In this document: piece by piece, positions 31,632-51,820 of the stretch
Layout of the letters: the number at the start of each line of letters is the position of its first letter
Position numbering within the stretch: the stretch's first letter is position 1
Source of the DNA: Dactylorhiza incarnata
Lineage: Eukaryota > Streptophyta > Magnoliopsida > Asparagales > Orchidaceae
Assembly: GCA_033032865.1 (NCBI GenBank)
Contig: JAWHQI010000263.1
Span: 2,108,001-2,172,000 of the forward strand
Length of the DNA stretch: 64,000 nucleotides
Direction: 5' to 3'
Translations under genes and position numbers: made by a program
Notes under the pieces: generated by a model
Databases searched by the model: none
Told to the model about the DNA's origin: nothing
The model's input: the letters and a program-made list of their open reading frames with translations, nothing else

Positions 31632-32148
31632 GGCATGTAGGGTTTTTGAGTGATTTAAATATTAAAAAATAGTTTTTTTTAATTCCTATTTATGCAGTGG
31701 GAATAGCCAACGGATCTGCCTTAGGATCCGATCACCCATATTTATTTATTAAGGAAAAAAAAAGTATTTTGATTTTTCGAACAAGCCACCAATTCACCAA
31801 ACGAATTTCCGGCGTCATCTCCCTCTCACAAAGTTCTCCGCTCCACCGTCTTCCTCCACAAACAATATATAGTGAAGAAGAGGGAGAGAGAGAGAGAGAG
31901 AGGGAGAGAGAGAGAGAGAGAGCAACAGGGCCTTTCGACAATCGGCCGGTAAGATTTGATCCACCTTTCATCAGCGAAATTTCGCCCTTCATCACGAGGA
32001 CTCGGTGCCCGCCGTTCCCGATTGAAAGTCAGATCCCCAATCTTGGTCTTGCTTCCCGAAGGTATCAGTGCCATGGAGTTTCAAACATCGAACTCAAGCC
32101 AATTAGAAGATCTCATGCTCTCTAAGCCCTCACTGGCACTGCAATGAA
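31632..32148 (+). promoter_or_regulatory. TBL promoter/5' leader with GA microsatellite
   Basis: Between the MULE end and the TBL start codon. A (GA)n run interrupted by single G residues spans 31871-31922. The leader also holds a small upstream ORF (32073-32147). The transcription start is unknown. The MULE terminus lies about 500 bp upstream of the ATG, so it replaced or displaced any more distal promoter sequence. Confidence 0.5.
32073..32147 (+). CDS. Upstream ORF, 24 codons, abutting the TBL start
   Basis: ATG at 32073 opens MEFQTSNSSQLEDLMLSKPS plus four residues, and stops with TGA at 32145-32147, one nucleotide before the TBL ATG (tgaaATG). The frame is different from TBL. If the leader is transcribed from upstream of 32073, this uORF would be read first, and the tight spacing would favour reinitiation or leaky scanning. 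Its translation is an inference from position only. Confidence 0.4.
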   Translation: MEFQTSNSSQLEDLMLSKPSLALQ

Positions 32149-32960
32149 ATGGCAAGCGCTGTCCTTAGCCGGAGCGTATCCGCTCGCCTCAGCTATCGCG
32201 CCGTCAGCGTCAACAGTCCTCGAGTTTCCAATGTCGCACATCGAAAATGGTTGGTGCCTGGATCTTTCGTTAACGTTCTTGTCATCGTTTTCTTCCTCGT
32301 TTCGCTCGTCCTGGCTATGGCTTGCGTCGTTTACCTGTACTGGTTCCGGTATCTATCCCGCGGCGGCAGCGGCTTCATTTCGGCGTTCAGCAGTATGGCC
32401 GAGGACTGCGATGTCTTCCAGGGGAGCTGGGTGCCGCACGACTCGTACCCATTGTATAATAGCTCCGTGTGCCCATTTGTAGAACGAGGCTTCAATTGCT
32501 TGGCCAATGGAAGGAGAGACACGGAATATCTTCGATGGAGATGGAGGCCTCGGCTCTGTGAAGTCCCCCGGTTTGATGCGCATGAGATCCTGGAGAGGCT
32601 CCGGGGAAGAAGGATTGTGTTTGTGGGTGATTCAATGAGCAGGACACAGTGGGAGTCCCTAATCTGTCTTCTTATGACAGGAGTGGAGGATCCTCAGAGT
32701 GTGTATGAAGTTAACGGGAATAATATCACGAAAACTATTCAGTTTCTGGGAGTTCATTTCAGGTCTTTCAACTTCACCGTTGAGTTTTTTCGTTCAGTGT
32801 TCCTGGTGCAGCAGGGTCCACCGCCTAGTCATGGGCCTAAGAGAGTGAAGATGGCACTGAAGCTTGATAAAATGGATACTATACATCAGAGATGGGTTGA
32901 CTCTGATATTCTGATCTTTAATTCTGGGCATTGGTGGACGGAAACTAAATTGTTTGATGT
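32149..32960 (+). CDS. TBL10: TBL10-type O-acetyltransferase, exon 1
   Basis: First coding exon (270 codons plus 2 nt) of a TRICHOME BIREFRINGENCE-LIKE protein, a Golgi type II membrane enzyme that O-acetylates cell-wall polysaccharides. Residues 38-62 (GSFVNVLVIVFFLVSLVLAM onward) form the membrane anchor. The TBL domain starts at CDVFQGSWVPHDSYPLYNSS and continues with CPFVERGFNCLANGRRDTEY. The catalytic-type GDS motif is in RRIVFVGDSMSRTQWESLIC (GDS at 160-162). The exon ends KLFDV at a GTAAGT donor. The wording of these blocks is closest, from memory, to Arabidopsis TBL10; TBL8 or TBL11 relatives cannot be excluded. The DxxH motif that completes the active site would lie in a later exon outside the window. 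No stops or frameshifts were found. Confidence 0.93.
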
Positions 32961-33182
32961 GTAAGTTCTGATTCCAGATTTTTAGAGTTTTTTCTTTCAC
33001 TTCCAGCTAAATTAGTCATCTATTGGGCTGGATAACGACTCTTTTTACTGATTAGGGAGTTTTTTTTTGCTTATTGATGTTTTTCTGGAGTGAGGATACA
33101 ATTGCCCCTTGCTGTACATTTTGAATAAATTTATCATTTTTTGTTTAAGCAGGTATATGACGCATTTTATAATGTTTTCTTA

Positions 33183-39929: not shown

Positions 39930-42900
39930 ATATAGGAGTGAGAAAATACAAATACAAATACAATAGATAAAACAAATAAATCATAAACTCCATCCCCCCT
40001 CAAAATTGTGCTTGTGATGTATGTCAAACCCAACTTGCTCATAATATTCCCAAAGGCTCTCTGACTCAACCCTTTAGTAAGAACGTCAACCAACTGTTGA
40101 TCAGAGGGGACAAATGGAGTGCTCACAACTCCCCTTACTATGTTTTCCTTGATGAAATGTTTGTCAACTTCAATATGTTTAGTGCGGTCATGTTGAACAG
40201 GATTGTGTGCAATGTTGATAGCTACATTGTTGTCACAATAAAGCCTGATAGGCCTCCTGCTTTGAATCCCAAGTTCTTACATAATGGACCGAATCCACAT
40301 TCCTTTACATATCCCATGAGTTATAACTCTGAATTCAACTAGACCTCACAACAACATGTTTTTTGCTTCTCCAGGTTACCAAATTATTTCCAACCAGGGA
40401 ACAATATCTAGAAGTGAATCTTCGGTCATCAATAAATCCCGCTCAGTCAGCATCTGTGAAGACTTCAATGGTTAACTCTTTACTTGAGGTGAACAAGATA
40501 CCTCGTACATGAGAGGATTTGAGATATCGTAAGATCCGATGGGCAACATTCAAGTGGCGAGACCTAGGAGAATGCATAAATTGACTGATAACGCCAACAA
40601 CATAAGAGATATCTGGGCGGGTATGAGATAGGTAGATAAGCCTCCCTACTAGCCGCTGAAACCCAGTGATGTCCACAATAATTTCTCCATCATTTCTCCC
40701 CAATTTATGGTTGACTTCAATTGGGGTATCAACAGGTCTACACCCACTCATCCCCGATGTCTCGAGCAAGTCAAGGATGTACTTCCTCTGAGAGATAAAG
40801 ATCTTGTGCTTGGATCTGGCGATTTCAATGCCCAGGAGGTACTTGAGATTCCCAAGATTTTTTACCTCGAATTCGCTTGCCAATCTTGTCTTCAGGCTTT
40901 GGATCTCCTCCACGTCATCCCCAGTTATGACAATGTCGTCCACATAGACAATAAGAGCGGTCAGTTTTCCTTGCATGTGCTTTATAAACAAGGTGTGGTC
41001 AGCATTGCTCTGAGTGTAACCAAATGTCATCATGGCTCTATGGAACCTTCCAAACCAAGGCATATGAGATTGTTTTAGGCCATATAAAGCCTTTTTCAGC
41101 ATGCAAAACTTTTCCTAGATCCTTCAGCGGCCAGACCCGGAGGTAGAGACATGTATACCTCTTCTTCCAAATTCTAATGGAGGAAGACATTCTTCACGTC
41201 TAACTGACTGAGATTCCACCCTTTGCATACTACACATGAGAGGAAGATTCTAATGGAATTCATCTTTGGCTGTTTGCTATAAGAGCAAATGTTTCCTGAT
41301 AGTCAATCCTAGCAATCTGAGTATAGCCTCTGGACACCAATCTAGCTTTGTAACGTTCAACAAGTCCCTGAGAGTTTTTCTTTACGGAGAAGATCCACTT
41401 ACACCCGACAACAGTCTTTCCTTGAGGAAGATGACCAGATTCTACGTGCAATTTTTGTCTAGAGCCATCATTTCTTCAAGCATAGTATCCTTCCGTTTTT
41501 GGTCCCCCAGAGCTTCCTTCTAAGAAGAGGGGATGAATATGAAAGACAAAGAGATGACAAATGCTCTATGTGAGGAAGACAAAGAGTCATATGTCACATA
41601 ATGAGATAGGGGATGCCGAGTGGGTGCACAGTTACCTTGAGGACCAGAAGATGGATCTGCTGTTGGATTTGGTATGATGGGCGAAGCCTGAGTGTTTGTG
41701 ACCATGCATCTCCGAGTATAGACCAACAAAGGAGGAGGAGGCCGAGGAGGCAAAGGAGGCAGAACTACCAGACTAATAAGATGAATAGAAGGACTAGCAG
41801 GAGAATATGAAAGGAAAATAGGTAGAGAAATAGAGGAAGAACTCACTTTCATGGTAACATACTCCCCTTGAAGTGAGCTCCCATAGTAAGATTCAGATTC
41901 ATGAAAGGTGACATCCATAGAGACAAAGGTCTTTTAGGTTACATGATGAAAGCACTTCTACCCTTTTTGGGTGGGGGAATAGCCGATAAAGTCGCACCGC
42001 AATGCACGAGGGTCAAGTTTGTAAGTGCAAAGGATACGAGTAGGCACGCTGTTAATAAGATGCGCCGTCGTAAATACGACATCCCCCCAATAATATTTTG
42101 GAAGATGCATCCTACGCAAGAGACACCGGGCAACCTCAAGGAGGTGTCGATTCTTACGGTCAGCGACCCTATTTTGAGCAGGGGTGTAAGCACATGAAGC
42201 TTGGTGAATGATGCCCAGGTCACTGAGGTAGCGCTCAAAGTGAGAGGCAATGTACTTGCGGTCACAACGAAAAATTTAATGGTAGCAACTAGCATGAAAT
42301 TGAGTCATTATCATTTTATGGAACCGATGAAACAGGGGAATCACTTCATTTTTGTTTTCCATCAGGTAAACTCATGTGCAACGAGAAAAACAATCTATGA
42401 AAGTAACGAACTAGTGACAACCAGAAATAGAACCAACCGGGCCTGAGCCCTAAACATCCGAATGAATAATCGCAAAAGGAGTAGCACTAGGTGGGAAAAC
42501 ATGAGTAAGAGAAGTGCGTTTGTGCTTATTAAGTTCACACACATCACAAGTAAAATTATTAGACAAAGAGTTGGACATAGCAAGTAATAAAAGTTTCATA
42601 GCAGGGATAGACGAATGTTCTAGGCGACAATGCCAGGAATCCAAATCGGAAGGCTGGGCCACATGAAGAGCTTGCAGAGGAAGAGCTGTGCTGGAGGGAT
42701 CAAACACATAGAGACCTTCACACAATTTACCAGAGCCAATCACCGTCCCCATCTTCAGGTCCTGAAAGATACAAGAAGTGGAGAATAAAGTCACTTAGCA
42801 ATTCATAGAGTTAGTCAAGTGACTAATAGAAAGCAGGTTTCGAGTCAACTTAAGAACGTGAAGAATTGAAGAGAGAGTGAGGAAAGAGCATGAAATGGAT

Positions 42901-43344
42901 CCTTTTCCAACAATAGAAGAAAAATATCCATCGACAATGCTCACTTTGTCTCTACCAAACAGAGGAAAGTAGGACACGAAACCTGTCGCAGAGCCAGTCA
43001 TATGGTCGGTAGTTTCAGAGTCGATGATCCACTGGGTGGTGGAGCGGGTGGTAGCAAAATGTGCACCTGGGAGCCCCTGGTGGGCATAAGAGGACGATGA
43101 AGAACTAGATGGCTTAGACGGTTGACCATGCTTCAGGCGATGAAAAGCTTGGATCTCGTCAGCAGAAAGGGCAGGAGGAGCTCCCGTAGTAGCAGGGCAA
43201 CCATGAGGAGCAATATCTACAATGGCATTCGAAAGATGTGCAGATCTGGATGGAGGTGGTCGACTTGGAGAACGATCATAGCCACAACCTCCACGAGAGT
43301 CAGGTCCTCCTCTTGGAGGGGGAAAGCCGTGAAGCTTGAAGCAT
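39930..43344 (-). pseudogene. copia pol (zinc knuckle end, PR, IN, RT, RNase H)
   Basis: Minus-strand order from 43344 downward: the last part of the zinc knuckle (CFKLHGFPPPRGGP), protease with DSETTDHMTGSATG (the active-site DSG is changed to DSE), integrase (DSWHCRLEHSSIPAMKLLL, CDVCELNKHKRTS, RKNRHLLEVARCLL), reverse transcriptase (GKTVVGCKWIFSVKKNSQGL, ALIVYVDDIVITG) and RNase H (STPFVPSDQQLVDVLTKGLS). The reading changes frame several times. With the mutated protease and the insertion upstream it is non-functional. Confidence 0.9.
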
Positions 43345-43483
43345 GTTCTTATCATGGCGTCAAGGCGTACCATGGCGAGCCCCGTCCGCCTTGACGCTTA
43401 GGCGACAAGGCGGACGCCTAGGCGACAACAAGGCGAGCAAATGCAATGCGACAATATTAATTTTTTTTAAAAACAAATGAAGA

Positions 43484-43601
43484 TATAGACAGCGGTTATT
43501 ATAATAACCGCTGTCTATAGTCACTTGACAGACACTATAGACAGCGGTTATTATAATAACCGCTGTCTATAGTGTCTGTCAAGTGACTATAGACAGTGGT
43601 T
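43484..43601. repeat. Left subterminal palindromes
   Basis: A perfect 36-bp palindrome (tatagacagcggttatta and its complement) is at 43484-43519. It overlaps a 96-bp palindrome centred at 43553/43554 (43506-43601) with a single mismatch. The arms are agacagcggttatta, then ctatagtgtctgtcaagtga. Such DNA could form a long cruciform or a hairpin RNA. Confidence 0.95.
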
Positions 43602-43981
43602 CTCTTTTTAGGCAAAAGAGAACCATCATTCAGCAGAGAACCATCATTCAGCATTAACTTTTTAAACTGCATTCAGCCCAAGTCAGTACTCAACATATCA
43701 AGCATTCATGAATGAACAGAAATCCAAACCCAACATATCAAGCATTCAGCCAACACAGTATTTTTAAACTGCAAGTCTGCCACCCAACATGAATCACAAC
43801 AAGCCCAAGTCAGTACTCACTAAGTATTCAGCAACATGTAAATCTAAAGTTTGACACATTGAAAAGCAAAAGAAAAGAATACATTTCATAAATATAATAT
43901 AAACAAGCCCAAGTTTCAAACTTGACGTATCAAATAACTTGAGATCAAGAATACATTTCATGAATGAACATTGTTTTTAGA

Positions 43982-46690
43982 TCAATTAGAATCATCATCT
44001 AGTAAATCATTATTGGCATTGCAGGTGCTGGGTTGGTTTGAGGCACTTGTCATTTGCCCATAATTATCTACAAGATCTTCATCATCATTTGCAACTCCAA
44101 AGTGATCTAAATCTTCATCCCCTTCAGCTATTAGTTCAAGATTAGCTCCACTTCGTAAATTTCTAGCCCCGGTTCCAACAGCTCTCCCTACAGCTTCCCA
44201 TGTGAGATCATCATCATCATCAAATACTAGAGTATCATCTGGTTTGTTTATCATCCACTCATTACTCCAATCTAGCTCATCAAGCGCTAAAGGGTTGTAA
44301 TTTCTTCCCTTTTCACGTCTTTCTTGAAATCGTGCTTGTAGACGACGATTGTATTGGATGTATACAAGATCATTAAGCCTTTGATGCTCCAATCTATTCC
44401 TTTTCTTTGTGTGAATCTAAAACAACATAATTGCAAACTAGTTAGTAGTACTTAGTACTTACTACTTAGTACTTAGTAGATATTTGTAAATAATTTTAAT
44501 TTTATATGTATATTGATTATTGAATATTTGTATACTTACAAACTCAAAAGTACTCCAGTTGCGCTCACAACTAGAAGAGGAACGACATAAGCCAAGTATG
44601 CGCAATGCTATCTTTGTAAGTTCAACATTCGGTCCTCCATGTGCACCCCACCAATCCACTATTTATTTAAGACGAATATAAATTAGTTAACAATTAACAT
44701 ACATATAGTTTAATAAAATATAAAAACGTAATCAATACTTACTTGGATTTAAGGTGGTTCGTTGCCTAATAGCCATAAGCTTTCCAAAACTATTTCGAGA
44801 TGCTTTATAGTTAGTGCCTTGTTCTGCGATCTTGTCTTGCAAGTGTTGATCGGGCACTAGTCTTGCAATAACGTCATTGAAAACATCTTGAAATTTCCAA
44901 GCATCATCATTATGTTTTTCCTCATATTGAAAATATTTGCTTGGATTTAAAAACAAAGCCGCCCTATACAATTTTTGCTCCATTTGATTTGTCCATCTAT
45001 TTTCAACAATGTCTATAATCTTTTTATATAACCTTTCTTTATTATCAAAATGTTCTTTGATCCTTTGTTTTGCCTCTTCCATTGCCACATAAACCTTAGG
45101 CATAGCTGGTCTTTCATCTCCATCTACTAACCGCAAAACAGCCATCAATGACTTTCCTCCTTTGAGGCAATCTCTTACTCCATTCCAAAAGACAGTTGAA
45201 AGTATTACTTCAACAACTTGTTTTCCGGCTTCGGTTTTTGCCAAATTAGCAGCATTCCACGAAGGCGAGACAAAGAATAATTTCAGCTTCTCCTCATGCT
45301 TAAGCACACTTTGTAGAGTAAGGAATGATGTTGCAAATCTAGTCACTGAATGCCTCACTAGATCACCACCTATTGTACTCCTTACTGCATCAAGTAAACG
45401 AGTGTGCCTGTAGATGAAATTTGTAATCATTCTTGCCTTTTTTATCACCATTTTGTTTTGTCGAAGCTTTCCAATGTCTTCTAGCATGAGATCAATGCAA
45501 TGAGCTGCACAAGGAGTCCAGAATAGAGTGGGTCTTCTCTCCATTAAAATTCTACCCGCTGCCTTGTAATTTGAGGCATTGTCAGTCACTACCTGCATAC
45601 AAGTATACAACATAAGTACATAACTTTGTATATATCTATAATCTATACTCTAGAGTTGTAAACCATTGAACATGAAATACTATGTTCAATTTACCTGGAC
45701 AACACAATCTGTTCCAATCTCTCTAATCTTACTATCAAGCAACTCTGATAGCATTGTAGCATCTTGAATATGACCGGATGCATCTACGGAACCCATAAAA
45801 TAAGTTCCCTCTGGACAGTTGACTAGGAAATTTATCAAATGTCTCCCTCTCCTATCTGTCCAACCATCTGACATAAGAGTGCAACCGTATCTCCTCCAAT
45901 ATGCTTGATATTTTGTCTTCATCTCGTTAACTTTCTCTTTTGTGTTTAGTAACAAAGGAACTCGTAAATCATGATAACTAGGGCCTTTATAACCAGGCCC
46001 ATATTGTCCAACTGCTTCAAGCATGATTTCAAAACTTCGTGCCTTTGCAGCATTGAATGAAATTCCACATTCATAGAACCAATCAGCAACATACCCATCA
46101 ACTCTCTTTTTCTCTTCAGGAGATCTAAAACATCTCTCAATAGTTGTTTGTGCAGGTCCTTTAGCACGCCTATCATCAACAACATCTTCAGGTGCACGTC
46201 TCACATGAGCATCCATAGGGCCTCTCTTTTGTGGAAGGTGGATTACTTTTCTCTTTTTGGCACCTGTCCCAGAACTTGGGACAAATGAAGATTTAGCTGT
46301 AGATAATGCCGGGGATACTTGTGATTGTGAACCTAACAACTCAACTTCTTGTTCACTCTCATTATCATCATCATCATTCAAATCGACCTTGTTCTTTTTT
46401 TTGTCATTTAGAGCTGCATACATTTCAGTTGCTATGTCCGAAGTAGTCTTCATACATTTTGATACATCACCATACCCGCCACACAAGTGTTGTTTCAACC
46501 TTTTGATTCCACCTTTAATCAACCGATCACACAAATTACATTTAACTGTATTTTTATCCTGTATGTCGGGCCAATGCCCATACTTCCATCCAGGATCCTT
46601 TGACTTTGCTTTTCTTTTAGGGTCAATTTTTGGATCAAGATCATTGCTATCAACGGATGGAGCAAGACTGTTGTTGTTTAGGTCCTCCAT
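43982..46690 (-). CDS. hAT-superfamily transposase, apparently intact
   Basis: Four exons: 46690-45695, 45592-44743, 44658-44540 and 44416-43982. All have GT..AG borders, and the total of 2400 nt makes 799 codons plus stop. Exon 1 carries a BED zinc finger (WPDIQDKNTVKCNLCDRLIK, then RLKQHLCG) and the start of the DUF659-type core (YWRRYGCTLMSDGWTDRRGR). Exon 2 begins VVTDNASNYKAAGRILMERR and includes LFWTPCAAHCIDLMLEDIGK, the conserved CxxH segment. Exon 3 ends in the hATC motif (LCRSSSSCERNWSTFEF). Exon 4 continues IHTKKRNRLEHQRLNDLVYI, then an acidic tail. hAT transposases cut and paste DNA through an RNase H-like DDE fold. No premature stop was seen. It shares its element with a CACTA-type gene upstream. 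Confidence 0.92.
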
Positions 46691-46924
46691 CTTTCACAAA
46701 CTACATCCATAGAAAGAAGAGTTATGTCGGGCACATAACAAAGTGAATAACTACTAAATAGTTCTAAAGCTAAATAAATCATCATCCAACACATAAAGTT
46801 AAGTAATAACTAATAAGTAGGGTCAATCACCATCACCATAAACAATTACACAAATAGTTCATACATCATAGACAATTACACAATTACATTTGATTAGCAA
46901 TAAGACAAAATATGTTTCTACTTT

Positions 46925-49848
46925 CTAACTTTCAACCGTTTTTCTTGTCGCACATGTATTGATTATATATTCACAAATCTTATTTCGCATATTATTTATT
47001 TTCTCAGGCGAAAATTCATTCACTCCATCATAGATCTGCAATAAAAACAAAAATATTTGTTAAAATAAATTCAACACAATTATTATCATGTATGAAACTA
47101 TATGCAGTTAACTTACCCTTGATGGCATTGTCCTACTCCTAAGACCATCAACTATGTCAATCATGTAGCACATGATATAATACCCACATTGAATACTATC
47201 CGGTTGTTTAGGGCACTAAATAAATAAACAAATGGTAAACATTAGAATTTAGAATTGTAAATATGAAAATAATTATATAACATATACTCATATAGGTTAT
47301 AGCTTACCGGCTTCCACCTTAAAACCTTTGGTTTTAGAAATTTGAGACTCCGGTCCTTTGCCAAATCCTTCAATGCACTTCATAAAATATTAAAAAAAAA
47401 TAGTTTACAGCCGAATCTAATAAATAAACATTTCTTGTGTCATTGCACTAATTAATAAACTTACAGTACAATGACACTTTTAAGATCATCACGAATGTCA
47501 TTATTTAAATGATCAAGCCAATAAATGGTATTGTTATCGTAATCAAGAATCACCAACATCCAATGTACTCTGTGTAACAAATAAAACCATTAATAAGTAA
47601 TAACTTAATTAGAATAATAAATAGCAATAATTATTGATACTTACTCTCTATAATATGACAAAAATAATAAAGAATCCGATTGTAGTTGAGCAAGCCTATT
47701 TTTTAGCTCTTGTGCTCGTGATATAATACGATCCTTGGCAAACTTATCATTAAAAGCAAAAATTGATGTCGGATTATGAAAATATACATTTCTTGTGTAT
47801 CTAAACTTGTTTAGTTGTGAATCTATGTACCTGTAAAAAAACATGTAAATTCATAATCAATATATATATTAACTAAAAATCTTAGGTTTGTAATATTTGA
47901 TAATCATTACTCACCCAATACATGAGAATATGATGTTAACTCCAATCTTTTCCATATTAAGAAAATCAAGCAACTCTGAAGCTTCAAAGTATGTACATGT
48001 TGATGTTGTAGTTCCAAATACATTTGGATGTAATACCAGAGTTATTATTTTGTCCTGTGTCTCCATCATCTTAATGAAATTGGGTAACATGACAATGACA
48101 TTATTGACATTCTGTGGAATTAAAAATAATTAGTATTTAGTATTTCGGGCAAAAAATTTAATTACATAAAGATAAAAAATAATAATTATAAATTTATAAT
48201 ACCGAAGACGGTAAACACCCATGTGATGTTTCAAGCTGATGTGACGTTTCGGGTTGATGTAATGTTTCAGGCCCTTGTGAGGCTAATACAAGTGTCTGCT
48301 GACAAACCAAAAATAACAAGTTAACTATAAATAAAAGTATAAAGATAACATGATATTTCATAAAAGTATAAATAATTAAACATAAATACATAATAATACC
48401 TGAGAAGTTTCAGTTCTAGCACTAAATATGCGCATAAGATCATCCATTTTCATTTTCATACTAGCCATCTCTGCTTGATACGCTTGTTGTTGTTGGCTGA
48501 GTTGGCTCTGAAAAGCCTGCTCATGTTGTTGTTGTTGTTGTTCGTTGAGTTGTCTTATTTGGCTCGCATAGGCCTGATGCTCTTGTTGTTGTTCTTGCCT
48601 CCACAACTCTTGTTGCTTGCTCAATCTTTCTTGAACAATAGACTCCACATCATCAATGCGAGCTATTGTACTTCTCTCCTTCCGCTTATCATTCTTGAAA
48701 AAATTTGTAATGGTGGAAAACTTGCCACCAGCTCTTACTCTGCCTGGATGTTCCTTGCCTAAAACAGATGCAAGGATGTCATCCCTTCCCTGTGGCACTA
48801 ATGCAGAAGACTGAGACTCTTGGCTCGAGACCTCATCCTAAGTGAAATCAAGAAATATTAATGCAAATGATGTAATGAAAATTTACAAATGATGAAATGA
48901 TAATTTAAACATACAATTCTAGCTGCCAAATCAGCTGCATCTTGACTAATGTATTCACCAGTCTTTCTTTTGTGACCGGCTTTCCATAGCTCCGCACGTG
49001 AAAGTGGTGTATTTGCACCTTGTTCAATCTTGACAATAAAATGCAAATAAATTATCATTTAAATTATTGAGAAAACCAAGTTTTAAAACAAAATATATGA
49101 GAGAGAAGTAGAGAACTAAATAGTAAATACTAATACCATCCTTTTTTCTAATCCAGAATAACCCATTCTGGAAGTAGTATGCAACGACTTTTGTGTTTTT
49201 GCTCTCTCTGAATTAGCTTTACTTTTCTCCTACACAAATGAATATCTGTTAATACTTAATACGTAGAGTAGAATGCTATAAAACATTGAGTTTATTAAGA
49301 AAACATAACCATAGATTCTGGAGTGGTGCGACTGTCGACAAAAACTTTCCAATCGTCGGGAGTTATGAAATTATACTTGACAGGAACATTGTAAAGATGC
49401 TCCAAATCAACATCCTTTACATAAGTGACATACAGTTTGGATTTCCAAGACCTCCAACTTTCACCCATGCTTTTTCATTAATTGATGGCGAACACCATCA
49501 ACATTATCAAAATAATTCTGAAAATAATAGATAATATTAATTAATAATTAACTAAAAAAACACAATTATGTAATCACTAAAAATGAAATTACGTACATTT
49601 ACTTCTTGCCACATTCGATCTTTAATTTGTTTATCAACTTCCTTCCATCTAGCAAATGTAACTGGCACATGCATCCTCACAAGAGAACCAATTAAACTCA
49701 TCAATTTATTATACTCAGGCCCGAGAATAATGTGGCCATCATCACTAACAGAAATATAAAGCTTCTTCCCCTCTACTATAAGCTTATTCAATCCGTACAT
49801 CTTAGTGTAGCCTCTTGTTGACTTTGATGAAGATCCTTTATCAGCCAT
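46925..49848 (-). CDS. Transposase_24 (TnpA-like) fused to Ulp1/C48 protease
   Basis: Twelve exons can be traced: 49848-49597, 49517-49310, 49229-49137, 49028-48915, 48837-48400, 48298(or 48295)-48203, 48111-47915, 47830-47645, 47569-47465, 47377-47308, 47215-47117 and 47035-46925. The protein would have about 655 residues. The first half is the plant En/Spm Transposase_24 type: ESWRSWKSKLYVTYVKDVDL, FITPDDWKVFVDS, AELWKAGHKRKTGEYIS, LVPQGRDDILASVLGKEHPG, then a Q-rich coiled coil. The second half is a Ulp1-like SUMO-protease fold with the H/D/Q/C residues in place: VHWMLVILDYDNNTIYWLDH and CPKQPDSIQCGYYIMCYMID. Phases agree throughout, except that exon 2 has one extra A in an A-run (at about 49474), which shifts the frame before ESWRS. 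This may be a real mutation or a sequencing error. In CACTA elements such a gene accompanies the TnpD transposase; here it accompanies a hAT transposase. Confidence 0.85.
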
Positions 49849-50253
49849 TTTCCTGGAATAAGAAAACCCTACAAAAATCCTAAACCATCAAAAACACCTA
49901 AACAAAATACTTAAAAAACAACAATAATATTGAGGTAAATAAAGAACAGTAAAACACACATATAACTGTCATAGAGAGACAGAGAGTATGCTTGGCAATC
50001 ACACATATAAATAAAGCAAAAAACCCAAACCACAAACAGTGAATCGTAAGAAAAAAAAACCCTAAACGGCTAAACCACAAACAAGAATTTGGAAATTATA
50101 TGAGCAAGTAAAAAATCGTAAGAAGGAATTAACGAACCAAAGGAGATGAGGATCTTTGAAAAAATCGCGGTTAGGGTTTTCGCACAGTCGAAAGTCGAAA
50201 CAGAGCAGCAGCGAGTAAAAAGTAAAATGTCGAGGTTAAAATGATATTTTATT

Positions 50254-50339
50254 TAGACAACGGTTTATATATAAACCGCTGTCTATTATATCATTCCTGA
50301 TACAATAGACAGCGGTTTATATATAAACCGCTGTCTATT
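50254..50339. repeat. Right subterminal palindromes
   Basis: Two palindromes, 50254-50285 (one mismatch) and 50304-50339 (perfect), have arms atagacagcggttta and a TATATA centre. They mirror the left-end palindromes of the composite element but differ in core (tttatatataaa versus ttattataataa). Confidence 0.95.
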
Positions 50340-50426
50340 CTCCTATTATTAAAAAAAAAATAAAGCGGCCGTCGCCATGTTTCCAATCGGCCGACTGGAC
50401 GCCTAGGCGTCACGCCATGATAAGAA

Positions 50427-51690
50427 CTCCCTAGTATGGCGGGCCTTCCCGCAAAAATCACACATCAAATAATTCTTCTTCGTAGGTTTGGGCCTAGTGT
50501 CACGAGTAGGACGATCACTGAGGCTGAACTGAGCAACAAAGGCCGAGCCCTCCGAGCCAGAGTCAGGGAGTAATGTTTGCCGACAATCAAATTCTTGCTG
50601 CGTAAGGCTGTAAACTTCTGCCAGAGAGGGGAGAGGAGAACGCCTAAGAATCTGAACTCTAATAGGATCAAAATCACGATGCAGACCATGAAGAAATTCA
50701 AAGATCCGGTTGCGTTCTTCTCGAGCCCGAATAAGCACTTCATATTCCGGAGAGACAAGAGTAAGTGCAACCAAGTGATCATATTCTTGATAGAGCTGCG
50801 TAAACTCCAGGTAGTAGGCGGAGGGGGAACGATCGCCCTGCCTCAAAAGGAATATCCGCTGTCGAAGTTGAAAAATTTGAGCAGCATTCCCATGGCAAGA
50901 ATAAGTAACCTCAGTACGCCTCTAAATATCGGCCGCAGTGTCCAAGAATAGGTAATTGCGAGCGATAGAGTCCTGCATGGAGTTGAGCAACCATGACATC
51001 ACCAAGGAGTTTTTAGACCCATTGCGGCCAATCCGTGGATGCCTGGGCGGGCGCCGCGGTTGTGCCACTAACATATCCAAACATACGGCGACTTTTGAGG
51101 GCAAGAGTGATGAAAAGAGCCCACGGGAGGTAGTTGGTGCCATTAAGTTTCATGGTGGTAATTTGAGGAGTCCCATGGTCATGGGTTGCACAGCCGGATA
51201 CCAAAGCCGACATTGGGGTGGTTGCAACATGAACTCCGGAGGACGTGTTTGTAGAATCAACACTCTCATCCATAACAATCCAAGGATACAAACCACGGGA
51301 TCGCAGAAATGAGGAGAAGGGGCGCAGCCTTAGGGTTTTCTCATAGAAAGAGAAGAACCCGAAAAAAAGTTCCGGCAACCGAAGCAAACGAAAGTAGCAA
51401 ATCAGGTATAGGAAGAAGGAGGAAGAACCATCCTCAACAGAAGAAGGAATGGACGCCGGAAAAGTGAGATTCAAGGCCTCATGCTGCCGACGCCCGGAAG
51501 CAGCGGACGGATCGGGCGCAGAAACGACGCGGGAAGAGCGGACGGAGGAGAGGCAGGCACTATAGCGAGGAGAGACGAGAGGGGCTGGTTTGGCGGAGCA
51601 GAAGCGGGATGCAATGTACATGATCGAGCGGGAGCGTACACGGTATCGAGCGGCGAGCGGAAACGGGATGCGAGTGGGAGCGGACGAACG
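50427..51690 (-). pseudogene. copia gag, 5' part of the split element
   Basis: Gag probably starts at MDESVDSTNTSSGVHVATTP. It continues ITTMKLNGTNYLPWALFITL (UBN2 N-terminal block) and, after a frame change near 51000, FTQLYQEYDHLVALT and IFEFLHGLHRDFDPIRVQIL. It ends in the zinc knuckle (CDFCGKARHTRE), where the composite element cuts it. The capsid blocks are in the right order but in different frames, so the gene was decaying independently of the insertion. Confidence 0.85.
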
Positions 51691-51820
51691 AGAGAGGGAT
51701 TAGGTTTACTCTGATACCATGTTGGAAATATGAAACCTTGATTAATTCATTAGTGTACACTCCTAAATATATAGGAATTGGAAAATACAATAGACAACAA
51801 ATAAATCATAAACTCCAACA

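What the first reader, a model, noticed from the sequence alone, without database searches (positions are those of the whole stretch)
43345..50426. Chimeric DNA transposon: hAT ends and transposase plus a CACTA-type TnpA/Ulp1 gene
One 16-bp perfect inverted repeat bounds a 7.1 kb unit with two complete-looking minus-strand genes. The downstream gene is a four-exon hAT transposase with no stop and a total length divisible by three. The upstream gene has a Transposase_24 domain and a Ulp1 protease with its catalytic H/D/Q/C residues, a gene type known from CACTA (En/Spm) elements. Subterminal palindromes of CACTA style lie at both ends, inside hAT-like ggcg-rich termini. A hAT engine combined with CACTA accessory protein and binding-site architecture would be a new kind of element. 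The alternative is a fortuitous nest of two elements whose inner borders have been lost.
Basis: partly seen in the sequence, partly recalled or inferred. Interest (0 to 1): 0.88.

Follow-up and report, generated by a model that had tools for sequence, protein, structure and literature searches.

The report
hAT transposon carrying CACTA-type regulator gene
A family of plant jumping genes shows the ends and transposase of one superfamily (hAT) but also carries a second gene and clustered repeat sites of the kind known from another superfamily (CACTA), and the two genes appear to have travelled together for a long time.

Summary
The finding holds. The window copy (43346-50426) belongs to a multi-copy family in its own 3.27-Gb genome. 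Of 20 loci fetched by the left end alone, 14 carry both genes in full extent. Of 18 with both ends, 16 have 8-bp target duplications (7/8 or better; mispaired control 1 of 306), the hAT hallmark. Family ends are CATTCTTATCATGGCGT...ACGCCATGATAAGAATG. Of 20 loci picked by the TnpA/Ulp1 gene, 20 have the hAT gene beside it on the same strand; of 12 picked by the hAT gene, 10 have TnpA/Ulp1. A chance nest is excluded for the family. Lineages B (five copies) and C (one) differ by similar dS in both genes (hAT 0.29, TnpA 0.36; dN/dS 0.2 and 0.5). The window's type looks like a recombinant of B and C joined near 46,790, between the genes. AGACAGCGGTT sites cluster near both ends in all 19 copies checked, none in the middle. 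Against: the window's TnpA gene has a private frameshift; the window copy has no target duplication; no copy of 15 has both frames open; TnpA exons diverge as much as its introns, though exon length changes stay multiples of three. CACTA origin is inferred; no donor was found.

The parts
43346..50426 (-). whole element (gene sense is minus); lacks the outer CA and TG seen in other copies
   Evidence: other copies align from 43346 to 50426 and carry CA before and TG after, with 8-bp duplications outside in most
43346..43360 (+). terminal inverted repeat, arm 1 (3' end in gene sense)
50412..50426 (-). terminal inverted repeat, arm 2 (5' end in gene sense)
43484..43601 (.). subterminal palindromes with AGACAGCGGTT half-sites (5 sites)
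50254..50338 (.). subterminal palindromes with AGACAGCGGTT half-sites (4 sites), upstream of the TnpA/Ulp1 gene
46925..49848 (-). TnpA/Ulp1 gene, 12 exons: 49597-49848, 49310-49517 (private frameshift), 49137-49229, 48915-49028, 48400-48837, 48203-48298, 47915-48111, 47645-47830, 47465-47569, 47308-47377, 47117-47215, 46925-47035
   Evidence: exon borders placed by hand on GT/AG and reading frame, no transcript evidence
43982..46690 (-). hAT transposase gene, 4 exons: 45695-46690, 44743-45592, 44540-44658, 43982-44416; 799 codons open
46691..46924 (-). spacer between the genes; holds the switch point (about 46,790) between a C-like TnpA half and a B-like hAT half
42795..43345 (-). flank: Copia gag-pol of the host retrotransposon, downstream part
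50427..51699 (-). flank: Copia gag of the host retrotransposon, upstream part

Best explanation
This is a hAT cut-and-paste element that has taken on a CACTA-style regulatory module. The hAT transposase cuts at the CATTCTTATCATGG ends and makes 8-bp target duplications (duplications shown; the cutting inferred). A second gene makes a TnpA-like protein fused to a Ulp1-type protease (domains shown). It most likely binds the AGACAGCGGTT palindromes that sit inside both ends (sites shown, binding inferred), as TNPA binds the subterminal repeats of Spm, helping to pair the ends and to lift silencing of the region upstream of its own gene, where one array lies; the protease may strip SUMO from silencing proteins there (inferred). 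Both genes appear to have been inherited together since before the B and C lineages split (similar dS) and to reassort by recombination in the short spacer between them (mosaic shown; direction inferred).
For: Both termini and both genes in 14 of 20 left-end-selected loci. TSD 8 bp at 7/8 or better in 16 of 18, control 1 of 306; 7 of 10 in the TnpA-selected set. Gene linkage 20 of 20 and 10 of 12. Exon structure largely kept in 14 other copies. C (L027) against five B copies: hAT dN/dS 0.19-0.23, TnpA 0.51-0.53, highest bootstrap upper bounds 0.29 and 0.72. Between C and one B copy (L014) the four TnpA exon length changes are all multiples of three, while all 11 introns change length, 7 of them not by multiples of three. 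Of 15 full copies, Ulp1 H and Q are kept in 15, C in 14, the two hAT D and the E in 15 (the Ulp1 D was not checked there). Sites near both ends of all 19 copies, 0 in the middle. A 531-bp copy (L025) keeps termini and palindromes only, with a 7/8 duplication. Platanthera zijinensis gene model P0002 joins a stretch like TnpA exon 5 to one like hAT exon 4 in this order.
Against: None of the 15 full copies has both frames open: two have an open hAT frame, one an open TnpA frame, so present activity is not shown. TnpA exons differ as much as its introns between C and B (JC 0.22 against 0.21 in aligned columns; hAT 0.10 against 0.34-0.35), and between A and B (identity 0.808 against 0.810), so dS may overstate TnpA constraint. 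Within types the ratios show no constraint (TnpA 0.92 within A, 1.82 within B; hAT 1.17 within B, 0.32 within A where L027 dominates), and hAT A-B pairs have median 0.76, as expected for decaying copies. The Ulp1 part alone gives 0.60 (0.41-0.91; one pair). No binding, expression or protease test is possible here. No donor CACTA element was seen. L009, L011 and the window copy have no duplication.
Confidence: 0.75

Rival explanations
1. Fortuitous nest: a CACTA element (or its remains) inserted in a hAT element, inner borders lost.
For: The second gene and the palindromes look foreign to hAT; this copy alone cannot exclude it.
Against: Both genes and both ends recur in 14 of 20 loci, palindrome arrays in all 19 copies checked, and the pair in lineages with dS about 0.3; linkage 20 of 20 and 10 of 12. 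No CACTACAAGAA-like terminus in the element. As the origin event long ago it remains possible.
Confidence: 0.03
2. Passenger: the TnpA/Ulp1 gene is a captured gene that rides along without a role in transposition, like transduplicated Ulp1 domains in MULEs.
For: TnpA dN/dS is about 0.5 against 0.2 for hAT; TnpA exons diverge as much as its introns; many copies have broken TnpA frames.
Against: dN/dS bootstrap bounds stay below 1; exon length changes between C and B are multiples of three, intron changes mostly not; 12-exon structure and Ulp1 H, Q, C largely kept; strong linkage; sites at both ends also in a copy lacking the genes (L025).
Confidence: 0.17
3. The module came from another source than CACTA, for example a MULE of the VANC/KIU type, which also pairs a motif-reading anti-silencing protein with Ulp1.
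For: [quoted passage not shown]
Against: The gene matches Pfam Transposase_24, described as the Ptta/En/Spm family (E 1.3e-18); P0001, one of the two relatives found, has Transposase_24 plus C48. The donor was not identified, so this stays open.
Confidence: 0.15

Closest known systems
hAT superfamily (Ac/Ds, Hermes, grapevine Hatvine families)
   Same: 8-bp duplication, short TIRs, transposase with hAT dimerisation region that aligns to Hermes; grapevine high-copy hAT families with TIRs of 8-23 bp and 8-bp TSDs (PMC2528002, passages)
   Different: Second gene (Transposase_24 plus Ulp1) and AGACAGCGGTT palindrome arrays at both ends
CACTA / En-Spm elements with TnpA and, in some families, Ulp1
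   Same: Transposase_24 and Ulp1 domains, subterminal repeats at both ends; TNPA recognises the subterminal repeats of Spm (PMC2613891, passages); ULP domains in five grapevine CACTA families (PMC2528002, passages)
   Different: No CACTA termini, 8-bp not 3-bp duplication, no CACTA transposase domain in the proteins scanned
VANDAL / Kaonashi MULEs with VANC-Ulp1 (KIU) genes
   Same: Element-coded motif-reading protein joined to Ulp1 (PMC13317346, passages)
   Different: Different transposase superfamily and ends; different second-gene domain
Crypton elements with C48 peptidase
   Same: Ulp1-related peptidase added to an unrelated transposition enzyme (PMC3212892, passages)
   Different: Tyrosine recombinase elements; no TnpA domain is mentioned in the passages seen

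Membership tests
hAT superfamily | 8-bp target site duplication | tested here: met
   16 of 18 left-end-selected and 7 of 10 TnpA-selected loci at 7/8 or better, control 1 of 306; the window copy itself has none
hAT superfamily | transposase with hAT C-terminal dimerisation region | tested here: met
   PF05699 E 2.2e-10, with PF04937 E 2.4e-58; Hermes match E 7e-5
hAT superfamily | short terminal inverted repeats | tested here: met
   17-bp CATTCTTATCATGGCGT, with variants in some copies
hAT superfamily | transposase cuts its own ends | not testable with these tools
   needs an assay
CACTA (En/Spm) | CACTA/TAGTG termini | tested here: not met
   termini are CATTCTTATC
CACTA (En/Spm) | 3-bp target duplication | tested here: not met
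   8 bp
CACTA (En/Spm) | Tnp2-type transposase | tested here: not met
   no such Pfam hit in both gene products and the other stop-to-stop frames of 80 aa or more within the element; shorter frames not scanned
CACTA (En/Spm) | TnpA-like gene (Transposase_24), in some families with Ulp1 | tested here: met
CACTA (En/Spm) | subterminal repeat arrays at both ends | tested here: met
CACTA (En/Spm) | TnpA binds those repeats | not testable with these tools
   needs a binding assay
MULE with Ulp1 (KIU) | mudrA-type transposase | tested here: not met
   transposase domains found are hAT
MULE with Ulp1 (KIU) | 9-11-bp target duplication (recalled) | tested here: not met
   8 bp

The most novel reading that the evidence does not exclude
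A two-module transposon class: a hAT engine whose movement or de-silencing depends on a CACTA-derived TnpA/Ulp1 regulator and on acquired TnpA sites in both ends, with engine and regulator reassorting as cassettes across a fixed spacer.
Probability: 0.42. Interest if true: 0.88.

Novelty: new variant of a known kind. Interest (0 to 1): 0.74.

Why it matters
Transposase superfamilies are usually treated as separate lines of descent. Here one multi-copy family joins the ends and enzyme of one with a regulator-type gene and site arrays of another, and the pair has persisted across diverged lineages. It makes testable whether TnpA/Ulp1 modules are portable regulatory or anti-silencing cassettes that other cut-and-paste elements can use.

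Tried and rejected
Nest of two elements: rejected for the family on copy evidence. CACTA termini inside the element: only scattered CACTA words and one CACTA-ended 42-nt palindrome (43533-43574); no match to CACT[AG][CG]AA. Viral-contig scans gave no relative (7 pattern matches, none confirmed; none). The protein searches for TnpA gave only P0001 and P0002 and P0001; only the candidates sharing most words were scored, and glutamine-rich words may have crowded them. Of the 120 hAT relatives listed (of 2073) plus P0001 and P0002, only P0001 and P0002 match the TnpA protein. Literature searches: in the listings, and in the passages I opened, I saw no hAT element with TnpA/Ulp1; the listed papers were not read through, only open-licence PMC text was searched, and Repbase was not. 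Passages only were seen of PMC2528002, PMC3212892, PMC13317346, PMC4158355, PMC2613891 and PMC10398659.

Full report
Observation. The window copy runs from 43346 to 50426 and lies inside the gag of a Copia element on the minus strand (Retrotran_gag_3 in 51013-51696; Pol_BBD in 42795-43397). Its 16-bp perfect inverted repeat is real, but the outermost base on each side is flank. The hAT gene is open over 799 codons with DUF659, Dimer_Tnp_hAT and a borderline BED zinc finger (20.1 bits against a cut-off of 20.6), and its C-terminal part aligns with Hermes (E 7e-5). The second gene has Transposase_24 and Peptidase_C48, and its H, D, Q and C positions align with yeast Ulp1. Exon borders are hand-placed; there is no transcript evidence.

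The family. The left end (356 bp) gave 887 first-look candidates in the window's own genome, of which 40 were scored. Of the 20, 14 hold both genes in full extent, three are internally deleted (L012, L017, L024), one is a 531-bp derivative with ends and palindromes only (L025), and two have no right end within the fetched stretch (L015, L016).

Ends and duplications. In the 18 copies with both ends the left terminus is preceded by CA in 18 and the right followed by TG in 17; outside these, 16 of 18 have 8-bp duplications at 7/8 or better (12 exact). Pairing left flanks with right flanks of other copies gives 1 of 306. L009 and L011 have none. This is the hAT signature and not that of CACTA.

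Linkage of the genes. The TnpA/Ulp1 gene DNA gave 542 first-look candidates, 40 scored. The 20 best-scoring that had not been fetched were probed with 601 bp at the place where the hAT gene should lie: 20 of 20 have it, in the same orientation. The ends of 10 of these 20, chosen by hand, were read: 7 have duplications at 7/8 or better (5 exact), two lack one end in the stretch read, one has no match in register. The hAT DNA gave 587 candidates, 40 scored. Candidate numbers are not copy numbers.

Two lineages and a recombinant. Aligned full copies fall into types. B copies (L013, L014, L018, L020, L026) match the window at 96-100% per 250-bp window over the hAT gene but at 59-88% over the TnpA half and 80-81% over the last 250 bp. 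L027 (type C) is the reverse: 93-99% over the TnpA half and 80-95% over the hAT gene. Both switches lie at about 46,790, in the 234-bp spacer. The simplest reading is that the window's type joins a C-type TnpA half to a B-type hAT half. In 19 of the 20 TnpA-selected loci the probed hAT piece is 88.8-92.6% identical to the window, which fits the C type.

Selection, for and against. Between L027 and five B copies, hAT dS is 0.28-0.30 and TnpA dS 0.36; dN/dS is 0.19-0.23 and 0.51-0.53, with bootstrap bounds below 1. So the pair was probably together before the lineages split. For hAT, introns (JC 0.34-0.35) diverge far more than exons (0.10). For TnpA they do not: exons 0.22, introns 0.21 in aligned columns, though introns have more gaps (0.20-0.23 of columns against 0.06). 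What does support a coding constraint on TnpA is the length changes between L027 and L014: 8 of 12 exons keep their length and the other four change by multiples of three, while all 11 introns change, 7 of them not by multiples of three. Within types, ratios are near or above 1 in most comparisons (TnpA 0.92 in A and 1.82 in B, hAT 1.17 in B; hAT 0.32 in A is driven by L027), as decaying copies would give.

State of single copies. Exon structure is kept in the 15 full copies, with scattered splice-site losses and a shifted exon 6 boundary in B. The window's TnpA exon 2 has one base more than in the 14 others. No copy of the 15 has both frames open. High identity and exact duplications still point to fairly recent movement, perhaps in trans (inference). 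Ulp1 H and Q are kept in 15 of 15, C in 14 of 15; the hAT D, D and E in 15 of 15 (that these are catalytic is recalled, and the Ulp1 D was not checked across copies).

Site architecture. AGACAGCGGTT (up to one mismatch) occurs near both ends of all 19 copies (window plus 18), 2 to 15 times per end, and not once in the middle, taken as more than 700 bp from the 5' and 1000 bp from the 3' end; L025 is too short for this split and has 12 in all. Shuffled window ends give 0.013 on average against 9 observed. Numbers vary between copies, and the motif persists while spacers differ between A and B.

Another species. P0002, a gene model of Platanthera zijinensis, carries a RecA segment, then a stretch 54% identical to TnpA exon 5, then a stretch 76% identical to hAT exon 4; P0003 of the same species is a hAT protein 87% identical over 645 aligned columns. 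The same gene order therefore appears in an orchid, unless the model joins unrelated exons.

Mechanism. Shown: hAT-type duplications, linkage, site architecture, mosaic lineages. Inferred: hAT transposase cuts; TnpA-like protein binds the palindromes, as TNPA does in Spm (PMC2613891, passages), and may counter silencing as reported for Spm TnpA (PMC10398659, passage); the Ulp1 part may act on SUMO-bearing silencing factors. The function of Ulp1 in the comparable KIU MULEs is stated to be unknown (PMC13317346, passages).

The window insertion itself. The joined flanks matched 40 scored places (of 785 candidates); I read the 12 given as loci. Ten of the 12 read TG between the two flanks where the element sits (two of these have CAAG for CATG beside it), and two differ by small indels. 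The window copy has lost that TG and its own CA and TG and has no duplication, so it looks like an aberrant or repaired insertion.

Novelty. In the searches named I saw no report of a hAT element with TnpA/Ulp1; Repbase and subscription papers were not searched. I file it as a new variant of hAT, not as CACTA: three defining CACTA features were tested and not met.

Noticed in passing
43340-43346 and 50426-50434: The window insertion has no target duplication, lacks the outer CA/TG and replaced a TG of the Copia target, unlike most other copies read: an end-trimmed or repaired insertion.
   Followed up: partly
L025, about 531 bp of element: Miniature copy with only termini and subterminal palindromes, with a 7/8 8-bp duplication: a likely non-autonomous partner of the family.
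   Followed up: partly
subterminal arrays in L012, L013, L014, L017, L018, L020, L026: These B-like copies hold 13-15 half-sites at the 5' end against 2-10 in the other long copies; array length varies much between copies.
   Followed up: no
window 46700-46800 and L013, L014, L018, L020, L026, L027: Switch points of the A/B and A/C mosaics coincide near 46,790, as if the spacer were a preferred exchange point; equally, one single recombination in the ancestor of type A would give both.
   Followed up: partly
window 32107-32961 (+): PMR5N plus PC-Esterase coding piece, probably a host gene or fragment.
   Followed up: no
P0002 (Platanthera zijinensis): A RecA-like gene model includes stretches of a related element, suggesting an insertion within a host recA-like gene or an annotation artefact.
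   Followed up: no
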